Origin: a bacterium
Lineage (GTDB): Bacteria > UBP6 > JAFGXH01
Assembly: GCA_027064085.1 (NCBI GenBank)
Contig: JAMOQH010000054.1
Coordinates: forward strand, 1-15,826
Direction: 5' to 3'
Length of the DNA stretch: 15,826 nucleotides
Part shown: in pieces, positions 918 to 13,514 of the stretch
Layout of the letters: every line of letters starts with the position of its first letter
How positions within the stretch are numbered: position 1 is the first letter of the stretch
Position numbers and translations under genes: made by a program
Notes under the pieces: model-generated
The model's database searches: none
What the model was told of the DNA's origin: nothing
What the model saw: only the letters and a program-made list of their open reading frames with translations

Positions 918-2477
918 CTAAAACAACATATTTTCTTCATACACATCATATTGATTTCTGCCTTTACGTTTTGCATTATAAAGACCTAAATCAGCAATAT
1001 ATATCATATCTTTAACCTCTGATATCATATGATATTTTGTATTCATAACACCAACACTTAATGTAATTTGAATTTCCTTATCTTCATCTTCTATATATAT
1101 TTTATTGTTTCTAACAGCGTTAATAATTTTTTCAGCCATTTTTTTTGCTTCAGAAAGATTTGTGAATTCCATTATAGCAACGAATTCATCACCACCATAT
1201 CTTCCAAATACATACCTGTCTCCAATTATTTCTTTACAAAGTTCAACCGTTTTTTTAATTACTTTATCTCCAGCTAAATGACCATAAGTATCATTTACTT
1301 TTTTAAAATAGTCAATATCAAACATTAAACAAGAAACAGATTCCTTCTGTAGCTTATTATAAAATGCAATCTCTTCTAATTTTTCTTCAATTCCTTGACG
1401 GTTAAAAATTCCTGTTAAAAAATCTCTTTTCGCTTCACTATCTTTATCATAATACTTTCCCCAAAGCTGATCATAAAAAGATTCCAAAGCTTTTGATTGC
1501 TCTACAATTTTTTTATTACTTAATTCAAGCATTTTATTTTTCTCTTCTATTTCTTTATATCTTTTATGTCGTTCTTTAACTTGATGTTGAATTTCTAACG
1601 AAAGAGTTAGTTGATCCAATTCTTCCTCTTTTATTTTATGCATTAAATCAATATATAATTTTTGAGTAAATGCTAAATTTTTATAATCTTTATTTTCATT
1701 ATATATTTGAATAACAGCTTCATAACTTTCTTGCAGTAAAACATTATCATTATATTCTTTTAAAAGGTTAATAGATTCATTAAAATATTCTAATGCTTTT
1801 CCCTTATTATTATTCTTATAAAAATAATTAGCATTTAAATTATAATAAAAAATTAAAATTCGTTTATTTCCTTTAAGTATTTTCATTTCTTTAATTTTAT
1901 CAAGATAGTTTTTACTTTCTTCTAATTTACCTAAATAGATATATGTTTTAACTAAATTAATTAATCCACGAATAACTAATTCTTCATTATCTGGATTATA
2001 ACGCATTGCTAAACTATATGATTTATCAGCATAGGTTAAAGCTTCTTCATACGCACATTCTAAATTTAAAACATGAGAATAGTTGCTATAAGCATTACTT
2101 AAAATAGTTTTATTATCTATTCGATTACATAAATTAATTAAACTTACTAAAGTTTCTTTACATTTATCATAATCTTCATTATATAAATGAAGAACAAAAA
2201 TAAAATTATAGGAATTTAAGAAATCTTCATTAGTACCTTCTTTATCAATTAATTCTTTATGATGCATTAAATCATTAAACGCATTTTTAGTGTCACCTAT
2301 GTTATAATATGAAACTCCTCTTTGAAAATAACTTTCAATTAATGCTCTATAATGATTATTTTTTTCACCAAATCTGATCATATCACCACATAATTCAATT
2401 ATTTTTTCATAATCAGATTCATTTCTATATTGATCTATTTTATTTTTAAAGTCATTTTCATTAAAAATAATCACCAT
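918..2477 (-). CDS. TPR-repeat diguanylate cyclase (GGDEF domain protein)
   Basis: Predicted cytoplasmic diguanylate cyclase, making c-di-GMP from two GTP. Residues about 1-280 are tandem TPR-like helical hairpins with no membrane segment, 280-340 are predicted coiled coil (KERHKRYKEIEEKNKMLEL), and 351-515 are the GGDEF domain. It has the RDFLTGIFNR entry motif, metal-binding FDID (386-389), FKKVND, an intact GGDEF (428-432) and LSVGV near the end. The positions where the inhibitory I-site RxxD normally sits read GDRY, so product feedback through that site is probably absent. The N-terminal TPR array presumably binds a protein or peptide partner. The start ATG has its SD (AGGGAG) directly adjacent; the next codon, GTG, is an alternative start. 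The promoter at 2581-2609 and a conserved leader precede it. A decayed paralogue lies at 8030-8679. Confidence 0.93.
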   Translation of the reverse strand: MVIIFNENDFKNKIDQYRNESDYEKIIELCGDMIRFGEKNNHYRALIESYFQRGVSYYNIGDTKNAFNDLMHHKELIDKEGTNEDFLNSYNFIFVLHLYNEDYDKCKETLVSLINLCNRIDNKTILSNAYSNYSHVLNLECAYEEALTYADKSYSLAMRYNPDNEELVIRGLINLVKTYIYLGKLEESKNYLDKIKEMKILKGNKRILIFYYNLNANYFYKNNNKGKALEYFNESINLLKEYNDNVLLQESYEAVIQIYNENKDYKNLAFTQKLYIDLMHKIKEEELDQLTLSLEIQHQVKERHKRYKEIEEKNKMLELSNKKIVEQSKALESFYDQLWGKYYDKDSEAKRDFLTGIFNRQGIEEKLEEIAFYNKLQKESVSCLMFDIDYFKKVNDTYGHLAGDKVIKKTVELCKEIIGDRYVFGRYGGDEFVAIMEFTNLSEAKKMAEKIINAVRNNKIYIEDEDKEIQITLSVGVMNTKYHMISEVKDMIYIADLGLYNAKRKGRNQYDVYEENMLF

Positions 2478-2500
2478 CTCCCTATCAATTTATATTACTC

Positions 2501-2525
2501 TAAAGTTTTGTAAAGTATGTAAAGT
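2501..2525 (-). promoter_or_regulatory. Triple direct repeat in the GGDEF-gene leader (possible operator)
   Basis: Three exact copies of TAAAGT on the plus strand (2501-2506, 2511-2516, 2520-2525), with a 10- then 9-bp period. Read in the gene's direction they are TTTACA-like hexamers, resembling PhoP/OmpR-family half-sites. A matching pair lies at the same distance from the -10 box in the SLH-operon leader (12653-12668). They sit about 60 nt downstream of the predicted transcription start, so repression or an RNA-level role is as likely as activation. Confidence 0.45.
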
Positions 2526-2554
2526 AATTGAAGAATGAAATCAAAAAAAATTTT

Positions 2555-2574
2555 TATACGTCAACCTTCGCATA
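2555..2574 (-). promoter_or_regulatory. 5'-terminal leader hairpin, copy 1
   Basis: In transcript sense the stem is TATGCG / CGTATA (one G-U) with the 8-nt loop AAGGTTGA. It begins 6 nt after the -10 box, so it would form the very 5' end of the mRNA. Copy 2 at 12699-12718 has the same spacing and nearly the same loop, with stem TATATG / CATATA, so two pairs differ in a way that keeps pairing. That is either a structured RNA or a dyad operator at +1. Confidence 0.5.
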
Positions 2575-2580
2575 CACTGT

Positions 2581-2609
2581 ATTGTATCTCAAAACCCGCT
2601 CTTTGAAAA
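2581..2609 (-). promoter_or_regulatory. Promoter of the GGDEF-ywbE unit
   Basis: On the minus strand, -35 TTTTCA (2604-2609), a 17-bp spacer and -10 TACAAT (2581-2586). The spacer ends in GGGTTTTGAGA. The same boxes with the same spacing and a similar spacer precede the SLH operon (12725-12753), and such conservation supports real use. The long leader to the ATG (about 100 nt) carries the hairpin and hexamer repeats. Confidence 0.65.
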
Positions 2610-2619
2610 GCTTTTTATC

Positions 2620-2639
2620 AAAAAAACACCTTAAGATGT
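2620..2639 (-). terminator. Small terminator-like hairpin before the GGDEF promoter
   Basis: In the minus direction, ACATC-TTAA-GGTGT is a 5-bp stem (one G-U) with a 4-nt loop, followed by a run of seven T. It would end transcripts coming from the capsule operon and its aminotransferase remnant. Related to the stronger stem at 12774-12803, which stands in the same place relative to the second copy of the promoter module. Confidence 0.45.
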
Positions 2640-2772
2640 ATTCGTCAACTGAAAATTCACATTATTTTAATTGAATTTTGACATTTGCTAAATTTAGATT
2701 TTAGATAAAAATGAGAATTTGATTGTATAATCTAATCCTCGCTTATTTAACTTTTATATTGTTGTGATTTAA

Positions 2773-7981: not shown

Positions 7982-8029
7982 GTTATTTTGTATAATAAAC
8001 ATAACATTTACAAAGTAAGTATTATGTAA

Positions 8030-8679
8030 CTAAAAAGTAATATTTTCTCATACACATCATATTGATTTCTACCTTTACGTTTTGCATTATAAAGACCTAA
8101 ATCAGCAATATATATCATATCTTTAACCTCTGATATCATATGATATTTTGTATTCATAACACCAACACTTAATGTAATTTGAATTCCCTTATCTTCATCT
8201 TCTATATATATTTTATTGTTTCTAACAGCGTTAATAATTTTTTCAGCCATTTTTTTGCTTCACTATCTTTATCATAATACTTTCCCCAAAGCTGATCATA
8301 AAAAGATTCCAAAGCTTTTGATTGCTCTACAATTTTTTTATTACTTAATTCAAGCATTCTATTTTTCTCTTCTATTTCTTTATATCTTTTATGTCGTTCT
8401 TTAACTTGATGTTGAATTTCTAATGAAAGAGCTAGTTGATCTAATTCTTCTTCTTTTATTTTATGCATTAAATCATTAAACGCATTTTTAATGTCACCTA
8501 TGTTATAATATGAAATTCCTCTTTAAAAATAACTTTCAATTAATGCTCTATAATGATTAATTTTTTTCACCAAATCTGATCATATCACCACATAATTCAA
8601 TTATTTTTTCATAATCAGATTCATATCTATATTGATCTATTTTATTTTTAAAATCATTTGCATTAAAAATACTTATCAT
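8030..8679 (-). pseudogene. Decayed paralogue of the TPR-GGDEF gene
   Basis: Near-identical at the DNA level to pieces of the gene at 918-2477, in the same orientation. It begins at ATG 8679 behind AGGGA, then has an extra A that shifts the frame and a CAA-to-TAA stop (YFQRG to YF*RG). It has lost 624 bp, joined at atgcattaaatca (a 13-bp repeat present twice in the intact gene), and about 285 bp, joined at gcttca. The second deletion removes the FDID and GGDEF catalytic motifs. One further base is lost near the end. The two longest open pieces (8202-8468, 8030-8250) are only coiled-coil and C-terminal scraps, so it cannot be a cyclase. Confidence 0.93.
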
Positions 8680-8719
8680 TCCCTAAATATTTAGAAATCA
8701 TAAATATATCAATTCCAAA

Positions 8720-8761: not shown

Positions 8762-10549
8762 TTATTCTAAAGTTTCTGCAGCAGCTTCAATAGCTCCAAA
8801 GCCCCAATTTTCTTCAGTTACATCAATAAATTTATTTTTAAGCACTGTATTAGTTTCTCTTCCAATAAATTGATTAATCATTATAGCAAATTCACTTCTA
8901 GTAGTTGGTTTATTTGGTCTAAATGTACCATCACCAAATCTAACACTAATTCCTGCATTATACATACGTCTAATATAATATCTAGCCCAATGATCAGAAA
9001 TATCAAACATACCCACTTCAGTTATTGGTACCATTATACTATTAACAGTCCAATAATTTGATAGAATTGCTGCAACTTCACCATTAGTAACAGGTTTATT
9101 AGGTTTAAAAGTGCCATCTGGATAACCATTAATTAATTTATGTTTAGTAGCAGCTTGTACTTCTTCATAATACCATTCTCCTACCTTTACATCACTAAAT
9201 AATGCTTCGCCAGGATCAGTTATATCTATCTCTAATATTCTAGTTAAAATAGCAACAACTTCCGCTCTTGTAACTGGTGCATTAGGTCTAAATGTACCAT
9301 CTGGGTATCCCTCTAAATACGCTCCACTAAAATATACTAAAGCTCCTTCAATATCTGGAGAATCAACTACAGATAATTGATCTGGTCCTCCACTACCTAA
9401 TGGTGTAACATTATCATCAATAAGAATGAAATCTTTTGAAATTTCAATTAATACCATTCCAGTATCTTCATTTCCATCTTTATCAGCTATAACATATCTA
9501 AAGATACCTCTACCTTTAAAATTATTTTTTGGTGTAAAAGTAATTACATTACCATTTATTGATACTGTACCATTATTAGTTTTACCTAAACCAACAAATC
9601 TTTCAGCATCTCTATCATTTGCTAATAATTCTTCAACAGTAACTTCAACAGGTATATTTATTCCAGTCACTAATTTATCATTTACTGCTTTCGGACCATT
9701 TTGAGCTGTTGGAGGCATATATCCTCCACCGCCTCCGCCACCTGGATTTGGTGGTGTTGGTGTTGTATCAATTTCTTTTAACAAACTAAAACCTTTAACA
9801 ACATCAGCAATTTCTCTTGTTGTATAATTTGCTTCTCCACTATTTAAATAATCATTTAACATTGAATTTAAACTATTTTCTAATTTAGTATCTAAATCAT
9901 CAAAAGTCTTTCCGCCACGATCAGCAGCTAAATCAATATACTCTAATATAGTATACTCATGAAATGTGCCCCCAACATTTGTTGTAATTTTTGTCGAATT
10001 TTTATATTCATCTGCAAAACTAAAATATAATTTTTTCCCATTTTCATCAAAAGTCATGATTTTTTTATCTTGCATTAATACACCTATATAGTACATATAT
10101 GTTGCAAATCTTGAACCTTCCTCAGCAGAAAAATCATATCCTGATTCAAAAGTATTACCTAAATTATCAATAAGATATTGATAATTGTCTTTTAAATCAT
10201 CTAAAGCAGTAATAAGTTCATCTAAATCTGTAATTGATTGTGGATCCGCTGTATCTAAAAGAGTGTCAATTACCTCTTTTGTTATATCAGATGTAATACC
10301 ATTATTATTAAATATTCCTTCTAACTCTAGATTACTATCCCTAAGTTCCTCAATAGCACCTTTTACAGAACCTTTATAATCATAATAATCTTTAAGTAAA
10401 TCTCTTAAATCTTTTGCATCATCTAATGATATCCCTAAACTTGCTACAACACTAAAAGGTGTATAAGTTCCTTGAGCAAAAGTAACTGGTGTAATAATCA
10501 TTGACATTATAATTACTAATGCAATGAATAAACTTAAATATTTTTTCAT
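8762..10549 (-). CDS. Secreted S-layer homology (SLH) protein with cadherin-like domain
   Basis: Predicted exported cell-wall protein of 595 residues. A signal peptide covers residues 1-25 (cut near TFA|Q), a mostly helical unknown domain about 30-260, a Pro/Gly linker 262-280 (seven consecutive Gly), a cadherin/tandem-type beta domain 286-372 (LLANDRDAE, ITFTPKNNF, FRYVIADKDG), and three SLH motifs at about 400-440, 450-498 and 513-562. The TRAE-type residues read TRAE, TNGE and TRSE. The tail after 570 (FIDVTEENWGFGAIEAAAE) looks like the first half of a fourth SLH motif. SLH domains anchor proteins non-covalently to pyruvylated wall polymers. A GTG at 10561 is part of the GTGAGG ribosome site, so the ATG at 10549 is chosen. 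Last gene of a three-gene operon. Confidence 0.92.
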   Translation of the reverse strand: MKKYLSLFIALVIIMSMIITPVTFAQGTYTPFSVVASLGISLDDAKDLRDLLKDYYDYKGSVKGAIEELRDSNLELEGIFNNNGITSDITKEVIDTLLDTADPQSITDLDELITALDDLKDNYQYLIDNLGNTFESGYDFSAEEGSRFATYMYYIGVLMQDKKIMTFDENGKKLYFSFADEYKNSTKITTNVGGTFHEYTILEYIDLAADRGGKTFDDLDTKLENSLNSMLNDYLNSGEANYTTREIADVVKGFSLLKEIDTTPTPPNPGGGGGGGYMPPTAQNGPKAVNDKLVTGINIPVEVTVEELLANDRDAERFVGLGKTNNGTVSINGNVITFTPKNNFKGRGIFRYVIADKDGNEDTGMVLIEISKDFILIDDNVTPLGSGGPDQLSVVDSPDIEGALVYFSGAYLEGYPDGTFRPNAPVTRAEVVAILTRILEIDITDPGEALFSDVKVGEWYYEEVQAATKHKLINGYPDGTFKPNKPVTNGEVAAILSNYWTVNSIMVPITEVGMFDISDHWARYYIRRMYNAGISVRFGDGTFRPNKPTTRSEFAIMINQFIGRETNTVLKNKFIDVTEENWGFGAIEAAAETLE

Positions 10550-10570
10550 ATTATTCCTCACTTTCTTTAT

Positions 10571-12007
10571 CTATTTCTCCGTCAATATAATGTCATATAA
10601 TTTCTTAACCATTTTAGCTACTTCACCACGTTTAATCTCCCGTTTCGGTGTAAGTGTACCATCTGCATTACCATTAATAATGCCAAGATTTGTAGCCATA
10701 ATAATTGAATCTTTATACATTTCTGATACTTTATCAAAATCAGAATAATTATCCTGATATATAAGAGTTTCTTCATCAATTTCAACTTCTAATATTTCTA
10801 AAGTGTTAGCAATCATTTTAATGATTTCTTCTCGTGATGGATATTTGTCAGGATTAAATTCATAATCAGATGGTACTATACCAATTGCTTTTGCTTGTAA
10901 TAAATATGATGTATACCATTCATCTTGATATTCTTCATCTAAATCAACACCTTCTGTAATGGTTTTTCCTTTATCGCTTACTATAGTTGCCACTAAAAAT
11001 TTAATAATTTCACTTTCTTTAATAAGTCCATCAGGTTCAAAAGTGGTTTCTGAACGACCATTAAGAATTTCTCTCTTTGCAAAGAAATCAACATAATCTT
11101 TTGACCAATGGTTCTTTGTATCGTCAAAATCAATTTCTAATATTTTTTCTTCAATTTTTTCAAAAATCAAACCTTTATTTTTTCGCCTATCCATTACGGA
11201 TAATCCTGATAATGGTGTCTCATCACCCTGAATTAAGAATAATTGATCAATATTTATAATAACAATACCTTCATCCTCACCAATGTCATTTACTACAGTA
11301 TAGTAAAATACACCTCTACCAATATGATCCTTATCCGGTGTAAAAGTTATTTGATTACCTTTTACTTCTATCGTTCCATTTATAGACTTACCAACAGATA
11401 AAAAGATTTCTGCATTTTTATCATTAGCCATAAGTTTATCAGCTGTAATTGTAATTGGTTCATTAACCATTGTATATAATATATCTTTATTAACTTTAGG
11501 TGCATTTGGATCTACAATTATAACAGGCGGAATAAAAGTTCCTCCTGAAGGCGCACTTCCACCATCGCCATTATTGTTATCATCATTACTACCACCTGAA
11601 TTTGTTCCTTTATATTTTTCATTAAGTTCATTAATTTTCCCTTTAGCAATTGTAACATCTGCCATTAATCCATAATCAATAAGTTTCATACGATCACTAT
11701 ATGACCAAGTTTTCAATGCTAAAATATTATCTTTTATTTTATTTGTACTAATATTTAAAGATTGTAATTTTTCTAAATCTTCATCTGGTAAATAACCTTC
11801 AAAATTATTAGCAAAATTAGTTAAATTAGTATCATTATCAAATACACCTCTAAGCATACTATCATAAAACATTTTCATTGTTCCATCCACATTTCTTGCT
11901 TTACTAAATAATATATCCATCTGGTCTAGATCAATTTGTTCTGCGTATACAGTATTAATACCCAATATTGAAATAATTATTAATAAAACTGTAATTATTT
12001 TTTTCAT
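10571..12007 (-). CDS. Secreted SLH-like protein with cadherin-like domain, paralogue of its neighbour
   Basis: A 478-residue exported protein built like the downstream SLH protein. Signal peptide 1-22 (VYA|E), helical domain 25-132, Asn/Asp/Gly/Ser linker 134-160, cadherin-like beta domain 166-253 (LMANDKNAE, ITFTPDKDH, FYYTVVND), then three SLH-type repeats at about 291-340, 355-402 and 422-470. The SLH binding tetrads are poor: KESE, SREE and KRGE instead of TRAE, so wall-polymer binding may be weak or altered. The parallel order of domains suggests duplication followed by divergence. The GGAGG ribosome site is formed by the last two sense codons of the upstream gene, with only 3 nt between its stop and this ATG, implying translational coupling. 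Confidence 0.9.
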   Translation of the reverse strand: MKKIITVLLIIISILGINTVYAEQIDLDQMDILFSKARNVDGTMKMFYDSMLRGVFDNDTNLTNFANNFEGYLPDEDLEKLQSLNISTNKIKDNILALKTWSYSDRMKLIDYGLMADVTIAKGKINELNEKYKGTNSGGSNDDNNNGDGGSAPSGGTFIPPVIIVDPNAPKVNKDILYTMVNEPITITADKLMANDKNAEIFLSVGKSINGTIEVKGNQITFTPDKDHIGRGVFYYTVVNDIGEDEGIVIINIDQLFLIQGDETPLSGLSVMDRRKNKGLIFEKIEEKILEIDFDDTKNHWSKDYVDFFAKREILNGRSETTFEPDGLIKESEIIKFLVATIVSDKGKTITEGVDLDEEYQDEWYTSYLLQAKAIGIVPSDYEFNPDKYPSREEIIKMIANTLEILEVEIDEETLIYQDNYSDFDKVSEMYKDSIIMATNLGIINGNADGTLTPKREIKRGEVAKMVKKLYDIILTEK

Positions 12008-12010
12008 ATA

Positions 12011-12628
12011 TTAACCTCCAATATATTCTTCAAATTTTGAAAGAATCCATTCTTGTTCTTCCTCTGTGAAATTTTCATAAAACATTTCTAAAGCTTCTGC
12101 TTTTTCTTCTGAAGTAAAGCCACCTTTAGATATTGTTAAGAGCCTCTTAATCTGTTCAGGTGATAACTTCTTAACAGCTAATGCCATAGCTTGTACTTTA
12201 TCTTTTGCTTTAGCATCATTCTTAGCCGCTTCTATTGTCTCATCATCTAGAGTTTTTTCTTCTGCTTTAGGCCCTTTTTCTTCTTCCGTAACTATATTTT
12301 TCTCTACTACTTCTTTTTCCTTTTCAGACTCTACTACATTCGCTACATTTTCATTTTCTACTATAGTTTCAAAATTATTATTGTTATTTTTATTGAAAGC
12401 ATATTCTTTTTCTTTTTTTAATTCTTCTAAAGAATCAACAAAAACAAATTCATTTTTACTTAAAGATTCCTTTTTAACTTCATTGTCTGTTTTAATCTTT
12501 TCATCACTTAATTCTTGATTTTGAAGTAAATCGTCCTTAGAAATTTCAAAATTTTCAATATACATATATATGCTTGTAAAAATTAAAAAAACTATAAGTA
12601 TGATAAAACCAAATATCTTTTTTTTCAT
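12011..12628 (-). CDS. Membrane-anchored acidic/charged protein, unknown function
   Basis: A 205-residue protein with one N-terminal transmembrane helix (about 5-24, IFGFIILIVFLIFTSIYMYI after MKKK) and no good signal-peptidase site, so probably a membrane anchor with the rest outside. Residues 30-140 are a low-complexity Glu/Lys/Asn-rich stalk with a poly-Asn run. Residues 140-203 form a compact predicted helical domain (KKLSPEQIKRLL, GFTSEEKAEALEMF, FTEEEQEWILSKF). First gene of the SLH operon, with ribosome site AGGTGG and the leader module upstream. Its partners suggest a role at the membrane-to-S-layer interface, but this is inference; I do not recognise the family. Confidence 0.8.
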   Translation of the reverse strand: MKKKIFGFIILIVFLIFTSIYMYIENFEISKDDLLQNQELSDEKIKTDNEVKKESLSKNEFVFVDSLEELKKEKEYAFNKNNNNNFETIVENENVANVVESEKEKEVVEKNIVTEEEKGPKAEEKTLDDETIEAAKNDAKAKDKVQAMALAVKKLSPEQIKRLLTISKGGFTSEEKAEALEMFYENFTEEEQEWILSKFEEYIGG

Positions 12629-12644
12629 TTAACCACCTATTTTT

Positions 12645-12668
12645 TTAGTTTGTAAGGCAATGTAAGGT
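12645..12668 (-). promoter_or_regulatory. Direct repeats in the SLH-operon leader (possible operator)
   Basis: Plus-strand TAAGGC (12653-12658) and TAAGGT (12663-12668), exactly 10 bp apart, with a weaker third TTAGTT at 12645. In gene sense they read CTTACA-N4-CTTACA. They match the TAAAGT triplet in the GGDEF leader in sequence and in distance from the -10 box. Confidence 0.4.
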
Positions 12669-12698
12669 GTACTAAAATATAAAGTCAGTACTTTCCTT

Positions 12699-12718
12699 TA
12701 TATGTTAACCTTCATATA
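12699..12718 (-). promoter_or_regulatory. 5'-terminal leader hairpin, copy 2
   Basis: In transcript sense, a perfect 6-bp stem TATATG / CATATA with loop AAGGTTAA, starting 6 nt after the -10 box. Compared with copy 1 (2555-2574), the fourth stem pair changes from G-U to A-U and the fifth from C-G to U-A, while the loop differs at one base. Confidence 0.5.
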
Positions 12719-12724
12719 CAATGA

Positions 12725-12753
12725 ATTATATCTCAAAAAACACACTATGAAAA
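12725..12753 (-). promoter_or_regulatory. Promoter of the SLH operon
   Basis: Minus strand: -35 TTTTCA (12748-12753), 17-bp spacer ending GTTTTTTGAGA, and a consensus -10 TATAAT (12725-12730). The layout is the same as the GGDEF promoter at 2581-2609. The leader to the ATG at 12628 is about 90 nt. Confidence 0.7.
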
Positions 12754-12763
12754 GCTTTTTTAC

Positions 12764-12803
12764 AAAAAACAAAAAACATCTTAAGATTGATCTTAAGATG
12801 TTT
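12764..12803 (-). terminator. Intrinsic terminator after the riboswitch-controlled vanZ-like gene
   Basis: Stem AAACATCTTAAGA / TCTTAAGATGTTT (13 bp, loop of 4) at 12774-12803, followed on the minus strand by TTTTTTGTTTTTT. It begins 20 nt after the vanZ-like stop and lies directly upstream of the SLH promoter. Confidence 0.9.
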
Positions 12804-13403: not shown

Positions 13404-13485
13404 TTCGGCAACTTGGCAATCGTAGAGTAAAACTCCTTAGATCCATAGCTTTGCGTCTCAAGATTTCTCTTGATTTGCTTTTATC
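13404..13485 (-). promoter_or_regulatory. Cyclic-di-GMP-I (GEMM) riboswitch aptamer
   Basis: On the minus strand the class I c-di-GMP aptamer is recognisable step by step. A 5' GCAAATC is followed by hairpin TCAAGA-GAAA-TCTTGA (13458-13473) with its GNRA tetraloop. Then come the conserved GACGCAAAGC (13448-13457) and a second arm beginning TATGGATCTAAGG, the tetraloop-receptor side. That arm closes through ACGATTGCC, and the aptamer ends with GTTGCC, whose TTGC pairs with the 5' GCAA as P1. A consensus promoter lies upstream and a terminator downstream. Whether c-di-GMP turns the gene on or off cannot be decided by eye. Confidence 0.93.
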
Positions 13486-13514
13486 GTTACATTTAATTTT
13501 TAATTACTATCTGT

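What the first reader, a model, noticed from the sequence alone, without database searches (positions are those of the whole stretch)
2497..2640. Promoter-leader module shared by the GGDEF gene and the SLH operon, with a covarying 5' hairpin
Two non-homologous transcription units (GGDEF gene, module at about 2497-2640; SLH operon, 12640-12803) start with the same module. It consists of a terminator hairpin, TTTTCA-N17-TAyAAT with a spacer ending in TTTTGAGA, exactly 6 nt, then a 6-bp hairpin with an 8-nt loop (AAGGTTGA or AAGGTTAA), and TTTACA/CTTACA direct repeats about 60 nt on. The stems are TATGCG/CGTATA and TATATG/CATATA, so pairing is kept despite two changed pairs. The hairpin would be the first nucleotides of the mRNA. 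It could be a regulatory RNA element, a 5' stabiliser, or a +1 operator tying c-di-GMP synthesis to surface-protein expression. I do not recognise it as a known riboswitch class.
Basis: partly seen in the sequence, partly recalled or inferred. Interest (0 to 1): 0.75.

Follow-up and report, generated by a model that had tools for sequence, protein, structure and literature searches.

The report
Duplicated promoter with a 5' hairpin
Two neighbouring transcription units, one making a c-di-GMP synthase and one making surface-layer proteins, start from recognisably the same old copied stretch of promoter DNA with a small hairpin at the predicted RNA start; the copying is real, but nothing available here shows that the hairpin is a special regulatory device.

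Summary
The shared block is real. On the minus strand, 2637-2553 (before the GGDEF gene) and 12787-12697 (before the SLH operon) align at 77% over 91 columns and 81% over the 64-nt core, far above shuffles. Both have TTTTCA-N17-TAYAAT, a 6-nt gap and a 6-bp/8-nt-loop hairpin at predicted +1. Parts of the reading fail. Only the SLH copy has a strong terminator; the GGDEF copy keeps one arm, folding to a weak hairpin. The TTTACA/CTTACA repeats are no more alike than chance. The "covariation" is one compensatory pair plus one A-U/G-U change; random substitutions keep all pairs in 27-52% of trials. No further copy with the hairpin was found in the bin, its two family relatives, 391 evenly drawn Clostridia or 9 other genomes or records. 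That negative is weak: the contig looks like a misbinned Firmicute contig, and no close relative was available. Best reading: an old duplication of a sigma-A promoter/leader segment, giving both units the same start region. The hairpin may mask the mRNA 5' end from RNase J, or be incidental. The locus does have a demonstrable c-di-GMP link: a strong c-di-GMP-I riboswitch upstream of the adjacent VanZ gene.

The parts
2553..2637 (-). Block copy A (upstream of GGDEF gene 2477-918): terminator-arm remnant, AAAAGCTTTT dyad, promoter, +1 hairpin
   Evidence: blastn self-match to 12697-12787, 77% over 91 columns; shuffle test
2604..2609 (-). -35-like TTTTCA, partly inside the 10-bp DNA palindrome AAAAGCTTTT (2615-2606)
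   Evidence: sequence; AAAAGCTTTT occurs only in the two blocks in the window
2581..2586 (-). -10-like TACAAT, 17 nt from the -35
   Evidence: sequence
2555..2574 (-). 6-bp hairpin, loop AAGGTTGA, beginning at predicted +1; one G-U pair
   Evidence: fold -4.2 kcal/mol for the first 22 nt
2509..2523 (-). TTTACA direct repeats (2523-2518 and 2514-2509); resemblance to the SLH leader not above chance
12697..12787 (-). Block copy B (upstream of SLH operon 12628-8762): terminator 3' arm, AAAAGCTTTT dyad, promoter, +1 hairpin
12774..12803 (-). Intrinsic terminator after the upstream VanZ gene, 13-bp stem; its 3' arm is the start of block B
   Evidence: fold -13.4 kcal/mol
12748..12753 (-). -35-like TTTTCA
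12725..12730 (-). -10-like TATAAT
12699..12718 (-). 6-bp hairpin, loop AAGGTTAA, beginning at predicted +1
   Evidence: fold -2.8 kcal/mol for the first 22 nt
12651..12666 (-). CTTACA direct repeats (12666-12661 and 12656-12651)
918..2477 (-). Diguanylate cyclase gene (TPR repeats + GGDEF), first unit preceded by the block
   Evidence: Pfam PF00990 E 5.9e-38
8762..12628 (-). SLH operon (unknown 205 aa, SLH1 478 aa, SLH2 599 aa), second unit preceded by the block
   Evidence: Pfam PF00395 in SLH1 and SLH2
8027..8693 (-). Degenerate copy of the GGDEF gene (from just upstream of the start codon to the stop), directly after the SLH operon; 94-97% identical to parts of 2492-915
   Evidence: stops and internal deletions
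13404..13489 (-). c-di-GMP-I riboswitch aptamer upstream of the VanZ gene 13308-12823, followed by a terminator at 13384-13361
   Evidence: Rfam RF01051, 84.4 bits, gathering 35

Best explanation
The two sites are two old copies of one segment of about 85-95 bp. The segment runs from the 3' arm of a terminator through a sigma-A-type promoter to about +22. Duplication or recombination within this surface-polysaccharide/SLH locus placed it in front of two unrelated units. RNA polymerase starts at about the first base of the hairpin in both, so both mRNAs begin with the same 20-nt stem-loop. The likely effect is similar basal expression of both units, plus modest protection of the mRNA 5' end from 5'-to-3' exonuclease (RNase J). 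Shown: the homologous block, its anatomy, and its two-copy number in what could be searched. Inferred: promoter activity, start site, duplication history, hairpin function.
For: Similarity of the two regions is far beyond shuffles (score 80 versus maximum 35 of 1000) and stops abruptly at about +22 downstream and inside the terminator hairpin upstream. The GGDEF copy keeps one arm of the terminator that is complete in the SLH copy, as expected if the segment was cut from a terminator-promoter junction. The locus shows other duplications: a degenerate GGDEF copy, two VanZ paralogues, two SLH/Big_9 paralogues. The block copies (77-81%) are more diverged than the GGDEF gene and its degenerate copy (94-97%), so they are older than that event. 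Hexamers, 17-nt spacing and 6-nt gap are kept. In RNase J bacteria, 20-25-nt 5' stem-loops are reported to protect RNAs such as RsaC and s-SodF (PMC8406224).
Against: No relative with either block could be found, so the direction and date of the duplication are unknown. Selection on the hairpin cannot be separated from mere shared ancestry with two copies: it differs at 4 of 20 sites, the rest of the 64-nt core at 8 of 44. The hairpin is weak and, in the SLH leader, predicted pairing drops to 14% when 130 nt are folded. No transcription data.
Confidence: 0.6

Rival explanations
1. The block is a shared operator region: a DNA-binding regulator binds the AAAAGCTTTT palindrome at the -35 and/or the +1 to +20 dyad, so that GGDEF and SLH expression are controlled together.
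For: AAAAGCTTTT is a perfect 10-bp palindrome, identical in both copies and found nowhere else in the window. The +1 dyad is symmetric in the SLH copy. Sites at -35 and +1 are classical operator positions (general knowledge).
Against: The +1 dyad is broken as DNA in the GGDEF copy (G/T at pair 4). The conserved loop is not expected for a simple palindromic operator. No further copies were found. Identity is equally explained by shared ancestry.
Confidence: 0.17
2. The hairpin is a dedicated cis-regulatory RNA element (protein or ligand bound, perhaps with the loop AAGGU pairing to downstream RCYUU sequences) that ties c-di-GMP synthesis to surface-protein expression.
For: Loop AAGGTTRA is nearly identical in both copies; the hairpin starts at predicted +1 in both; one two-sided compensatory change. 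Loop-complementary 5-mers are enriched downstream in the SLH leader (4, P about 0.01) but not in the GGDEF leader (4, P about 0.35).
Against: Pairing is kept by chance in 27-52% of random substitution sets; the downstream leaders are not alike beyond chance. No Rfam match. No further copy of the hairpin among 391 Clostridia genomes. At 20 nt it is smaller than known metabolite aptamers (general knowledge).
Confidence: 0.13
3. Variant of the best explanation: same duplicated promoter, but the hairpin has no function. Both sites simply inherit the same start region, and similarity persists because the promoter is constrained and time has been limited. (Confidence is for this sub-question and overlaps the best explanation.)
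For: Hairpin sites differ as often (4/20) as the rest of the core (8/44). About 8% of window positions begin some hairpin of at least 5 bp. The best Clostridia hit is a similar promoter-like site without the loop sequence (L127).
Against: The hairpin begins at predicted +1 in both copies and is in the lowest 1.5% of shuffles by energy; homology ends right after it.
Confidence: 0.4

Closest known systems
5' stem-loops that protect RNA from RNase J (e.g. RsaC of Staphylococcus aureus, s-SodF of Streptomyces coelicolor; PMC8406224)
   Same: A 20-25-nt stem-loop at the very 5' end, in a lineage expected to have RNase J (Firmicute-like contig)
   Different: Those are processed sRNAs; here the RNA start is only predicted, the stem is weak (-3 to -4 kcal/mol) and there is no decay measurement
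Housekeeping sigma-A promoters of Clostridia
   Same: TTTTCA-N17-TAYAAT, AT-rich spacer; the best hit in 391 Clostridia genomes is a promoter-like site TTTACA...TTTTTTGTGATATAAT (L127)
   Different: The -35 is weak (TTTTCA) and the two copies share far more than hexamers, including the spacer end TTTTGAGA and +1 to +20
c-di-GMP-I riboswitch (RF01051)
   Same: Present in the same locus, upstream of the VanZ gene that precedes the SLH operon
   Different: Unrelated in sequence and structure to the 20-nt hairpin; known class

Membership tests
Sigma-A-type promoter | -35 and -10 hexamers with 16-18-nt spacing | tested here: met
   SLH copy 10 of 12 matches with spacing 17; GGDEF copy has the same layout with TACAAT. 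Such sites are common by chance here (96 found, 115 expected), so presence alone is weak.
Sigma-A-type promoter | RNA 5' end 6-8 nt after the -10 | not testable with these tools
   no transcript data
Structured cis-regulatory RNA / riboswitch | Match to a known family | tested here: not met
   no Rfam match over either module at gathering score; none at E<=1 for the GGDEF copy, only sub-threshold matches around the terminator for the SLH copy
Structured cis-regulatory RNA / riboswitch | Covariation supporting the stem across homologues | tested here: inconclusive
   two sequences only; one two-sided change; pairing kept by chance in 27-52% of trials
Structured cis-regulatory RNA / riboswitch | Recurrence before functionally related genes | tested here: inconclusive
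   only the two window copies in the bin and none with the hairpin in 391 Clostridia; source lineage probably not sampled
5' protective stem-loop (RNase J barrier) | Stem-loop at or within a few nt of the 5' end | tested here: inconclusive
   predicted only; hairpin starts at predicted +1
c-di-GMP-I riboswitch (for the neighbouring element) | RF01051 aptamer above gathering score | tested here: met
   84.4 bits versus 35

The most novel reading that the evidence does not exclude
A lineage-specific 5' hairpin, with or without the AAAAGCTTTT dyad, is a true regulatory element shared by a diguanylate cyclase and an S-layer-type operon, so that c-di-GMP synthesis and surface-protein expression respond together, next to a c-di-GMP-I riboswitch that reads the product.
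Probability: 0.15. Interest if true: 0.5.

Novelty: new member of a known kind. Interest (0 to 1): 0.22.

Why it matters
If only a duplicated promoter, it is a clean small example of how two unrelated units in one locus come to share a start region. If the shared start region is regulated, it would place a diguanylate cyclase and surface proteins under one control next to a c-di-GMP riboswitch, a testable feedback arrangement. It also warns that the bin this contig sits in is probably mixed.

Tried and rejected
Pattern with up to 3 mismatches in the bin: only the two copies. Covariance model R1: own bin next hit E 0.26. Weak hits in family genome G001 were examined and lie inside coding frames, so rejected as chance. 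391 Clostridia: the best two hits (36 and 32 bits) were examined; L127 is a promoter-like site without the loop sequence, L128 is not convincing. Nine other Firmicute or outlier genomes/records: nothing convincing (best E 0.02, L126, inside an ORF). No GGDEF orthologue in 391 Clostridia: nearly all hits cover only the GGDEF domain, and R1 finds nothing around these hits, so phylogenetic footprinting was not possible. Viral contigs, phages, plasmids: no match to the block (each copy was searched in only one of the phage and plasmid collections). A loop-to-repeat pseudoknot (AAGGU with RCYUU) was considered; enrichment is seen in one leader only and was noticed after the fact, so it is not claimed. 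A leader peptide starting at the AUG in the stem was considered and dropped because the AUG is at different positions in the two copies. A plasmid hit from Paraclostridium sordellii (SLH region) was looked at only as a gene-content lead and not used.

Full report
WHAT IS THERE. All features are on the minus strand. The GGDEF gene (2477-918, TPR repeats plus a GGDEF domain) and the three-gene SLH operon (12628-8762) are each preceded by a block that aligns without gaps over a 64-nt core: AAAAAGCTTTTC, ten variable bases, TTTTGAGA, TAYAAT, six bases, TATRYG-AAGGTTRA-CRTATA, AA. Twelve of 64 positions differ. The longer blastn match is 2637-2553 against 12787-12697, 77% over 91 columns. The local-alignment score of the two upstream regions is 80; 1000 pairs of dinucleotide shuffles reach at most 35. 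The similarity is therefore real.

WHAT IS NOT THERE. The terminator hairpin is complete only upstream of the SLH promoter (12803-12774, 13 bp). The GGDEF copy has the 3' arm with its T-run but not the 5' arm, and folds to about -3 kcal/mol. From +23 to the start codon the two leaders are no more alike than shuffles (212 of 1000), so the TTTACA/CTTACA repeats are not established as a shared feature. The stems differ by one two-sided change and one G-U/A-U change; keeping all six pairs would happen in 27-52% of random substitution sets, so covariation gives no real support.

COPY NUMBER. Within the bin the pattern and the covariance model find only these two. The bin's class, order and family contain only three held genomes. 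The relatives gave only hits inside reading frames. Of 391 evenly drawn Clostridia, two gave marginal scores (36 and 32 bits). On inspection the better one is a promoter-like site TTTACA...TTTTTTGTGATATAAT without the loop sequence, which suggests that part of the model is simply clostridial promoter style.

THE CONTIG IS PROBABLY MISBINNED. The other contigs sampled carry genes that look Gram-negative in style (M16 peptidases, lipoproteins, RpoN, my reading), whereas the window has split Cps4B/C/D-type capsule regulators, SLH proteins, VanZ, YwbE and the bin's only c-di-GMP-I riboswitch. Codon usage differs (Arg codons p = 1.2e-7, Ile p = 8e-5), and the window has the largest mean codon-usage distance of the 11 stretches (0.622), though one own contig is near it (0.610). 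Tetranucleotide profiles do not separate it. This is an inference, but it means that absence of further copies in 'its own genome' and family says little.

HISTORY. The degenerate GGDEF copy at 8693-8027 sits right behind the SLH operon and is 94-97% identical to the intact gene from just upstream of the start codon to the stop. The promoter blocks at 77-81% are older than that duplication. The GGDEF promoter block carries one arm of a terminator whose complete form lies upstream of the SLH block, which suggests that the segment was copied from a terminator-promoter junction like the SLH one. Direction is inferred, not shown.

MECHANISM. Most likely both units use the same sigma-A-type promoter and begin at or next to the hairpin. 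A 20-nt 5' stem-loop can hinder RNase J, as reviewed for RsaC and s-SodF (PMC8406224), so modest mRNA stabilisation is the leading functional idea; it is inference. With two copies, constraint on hairpin, dyad and promoter cannot be separated from common descent.

CONTEXT. The c-di-GMP-I aptamer (13489-13404, 84.4 bits) lies upstream of VanZ (13308-12823), itself upstream of the SLH terminator. Its 5' strand AACGATAA is exactly complementary to TTATCGTT in the terminator's 3' arm, which would fit an antiterminator and a switch that turns VanZ off when c-di-GMP is bound; this was not tested further. It is the sounder evidence that c-di-GMP matters at this locus.

VERDICT. A real homologous promoter block, ordinary in kind; the interpretation as a covarying regulatory RNA is not supported by present data.

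Noticed in passing
window 13489-13404 (-), terminator 13384-13361: c-di-GMP-I riboswitch upstream of a VanZ-family gene; AACGATAA at the aptamer's 5' side is exactly complementary to TTATCGTT of the terminator, suggesting a terminator-type OFF switch. It is the only RF01051 match in the bin.
   Followed up: partly
window 8693-8027 (-): Degenerate copy of the GGDEF gene, 94-97% identical, whose homology runs almost exactly from ribosome-binding site to stop codon, with internal deletions, directly behind the SLH operon.
   Followed up: partly
window about 3380-2784 (-): Remains of a DegT/DnrJ/EryC1-family aminotransferase gene broken by stops and frameshifts (Pfam PF01041 on two fragments), between the capsule genes and the GGDEF promoter.
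   Followed up: partly
whole window (contig C54 of the bin): Codon usage and gene content suggest a Firmicute contig misbinned in a MAG of a different, sparsely sampled class.
   Followed up: partly
window 2615-2606 and 12759-12750: Perfect palindrome AAAAGCTTTT overlapping the -35 in both promoter blocks and nowhere else in the window.
   Followed up: partly
window 2492-2470 (-): The GGDEF ATG at 2477 directly abuts the AGGGAG ribosome-binding sequence; the true start may be the next codon GTG or a later codon.
   Followed up: no
window 13986-13540 and 13308-12823 (-): Two paralogous VanZ-family genes in tandem with the riboswitch between them.
   Followed up: no
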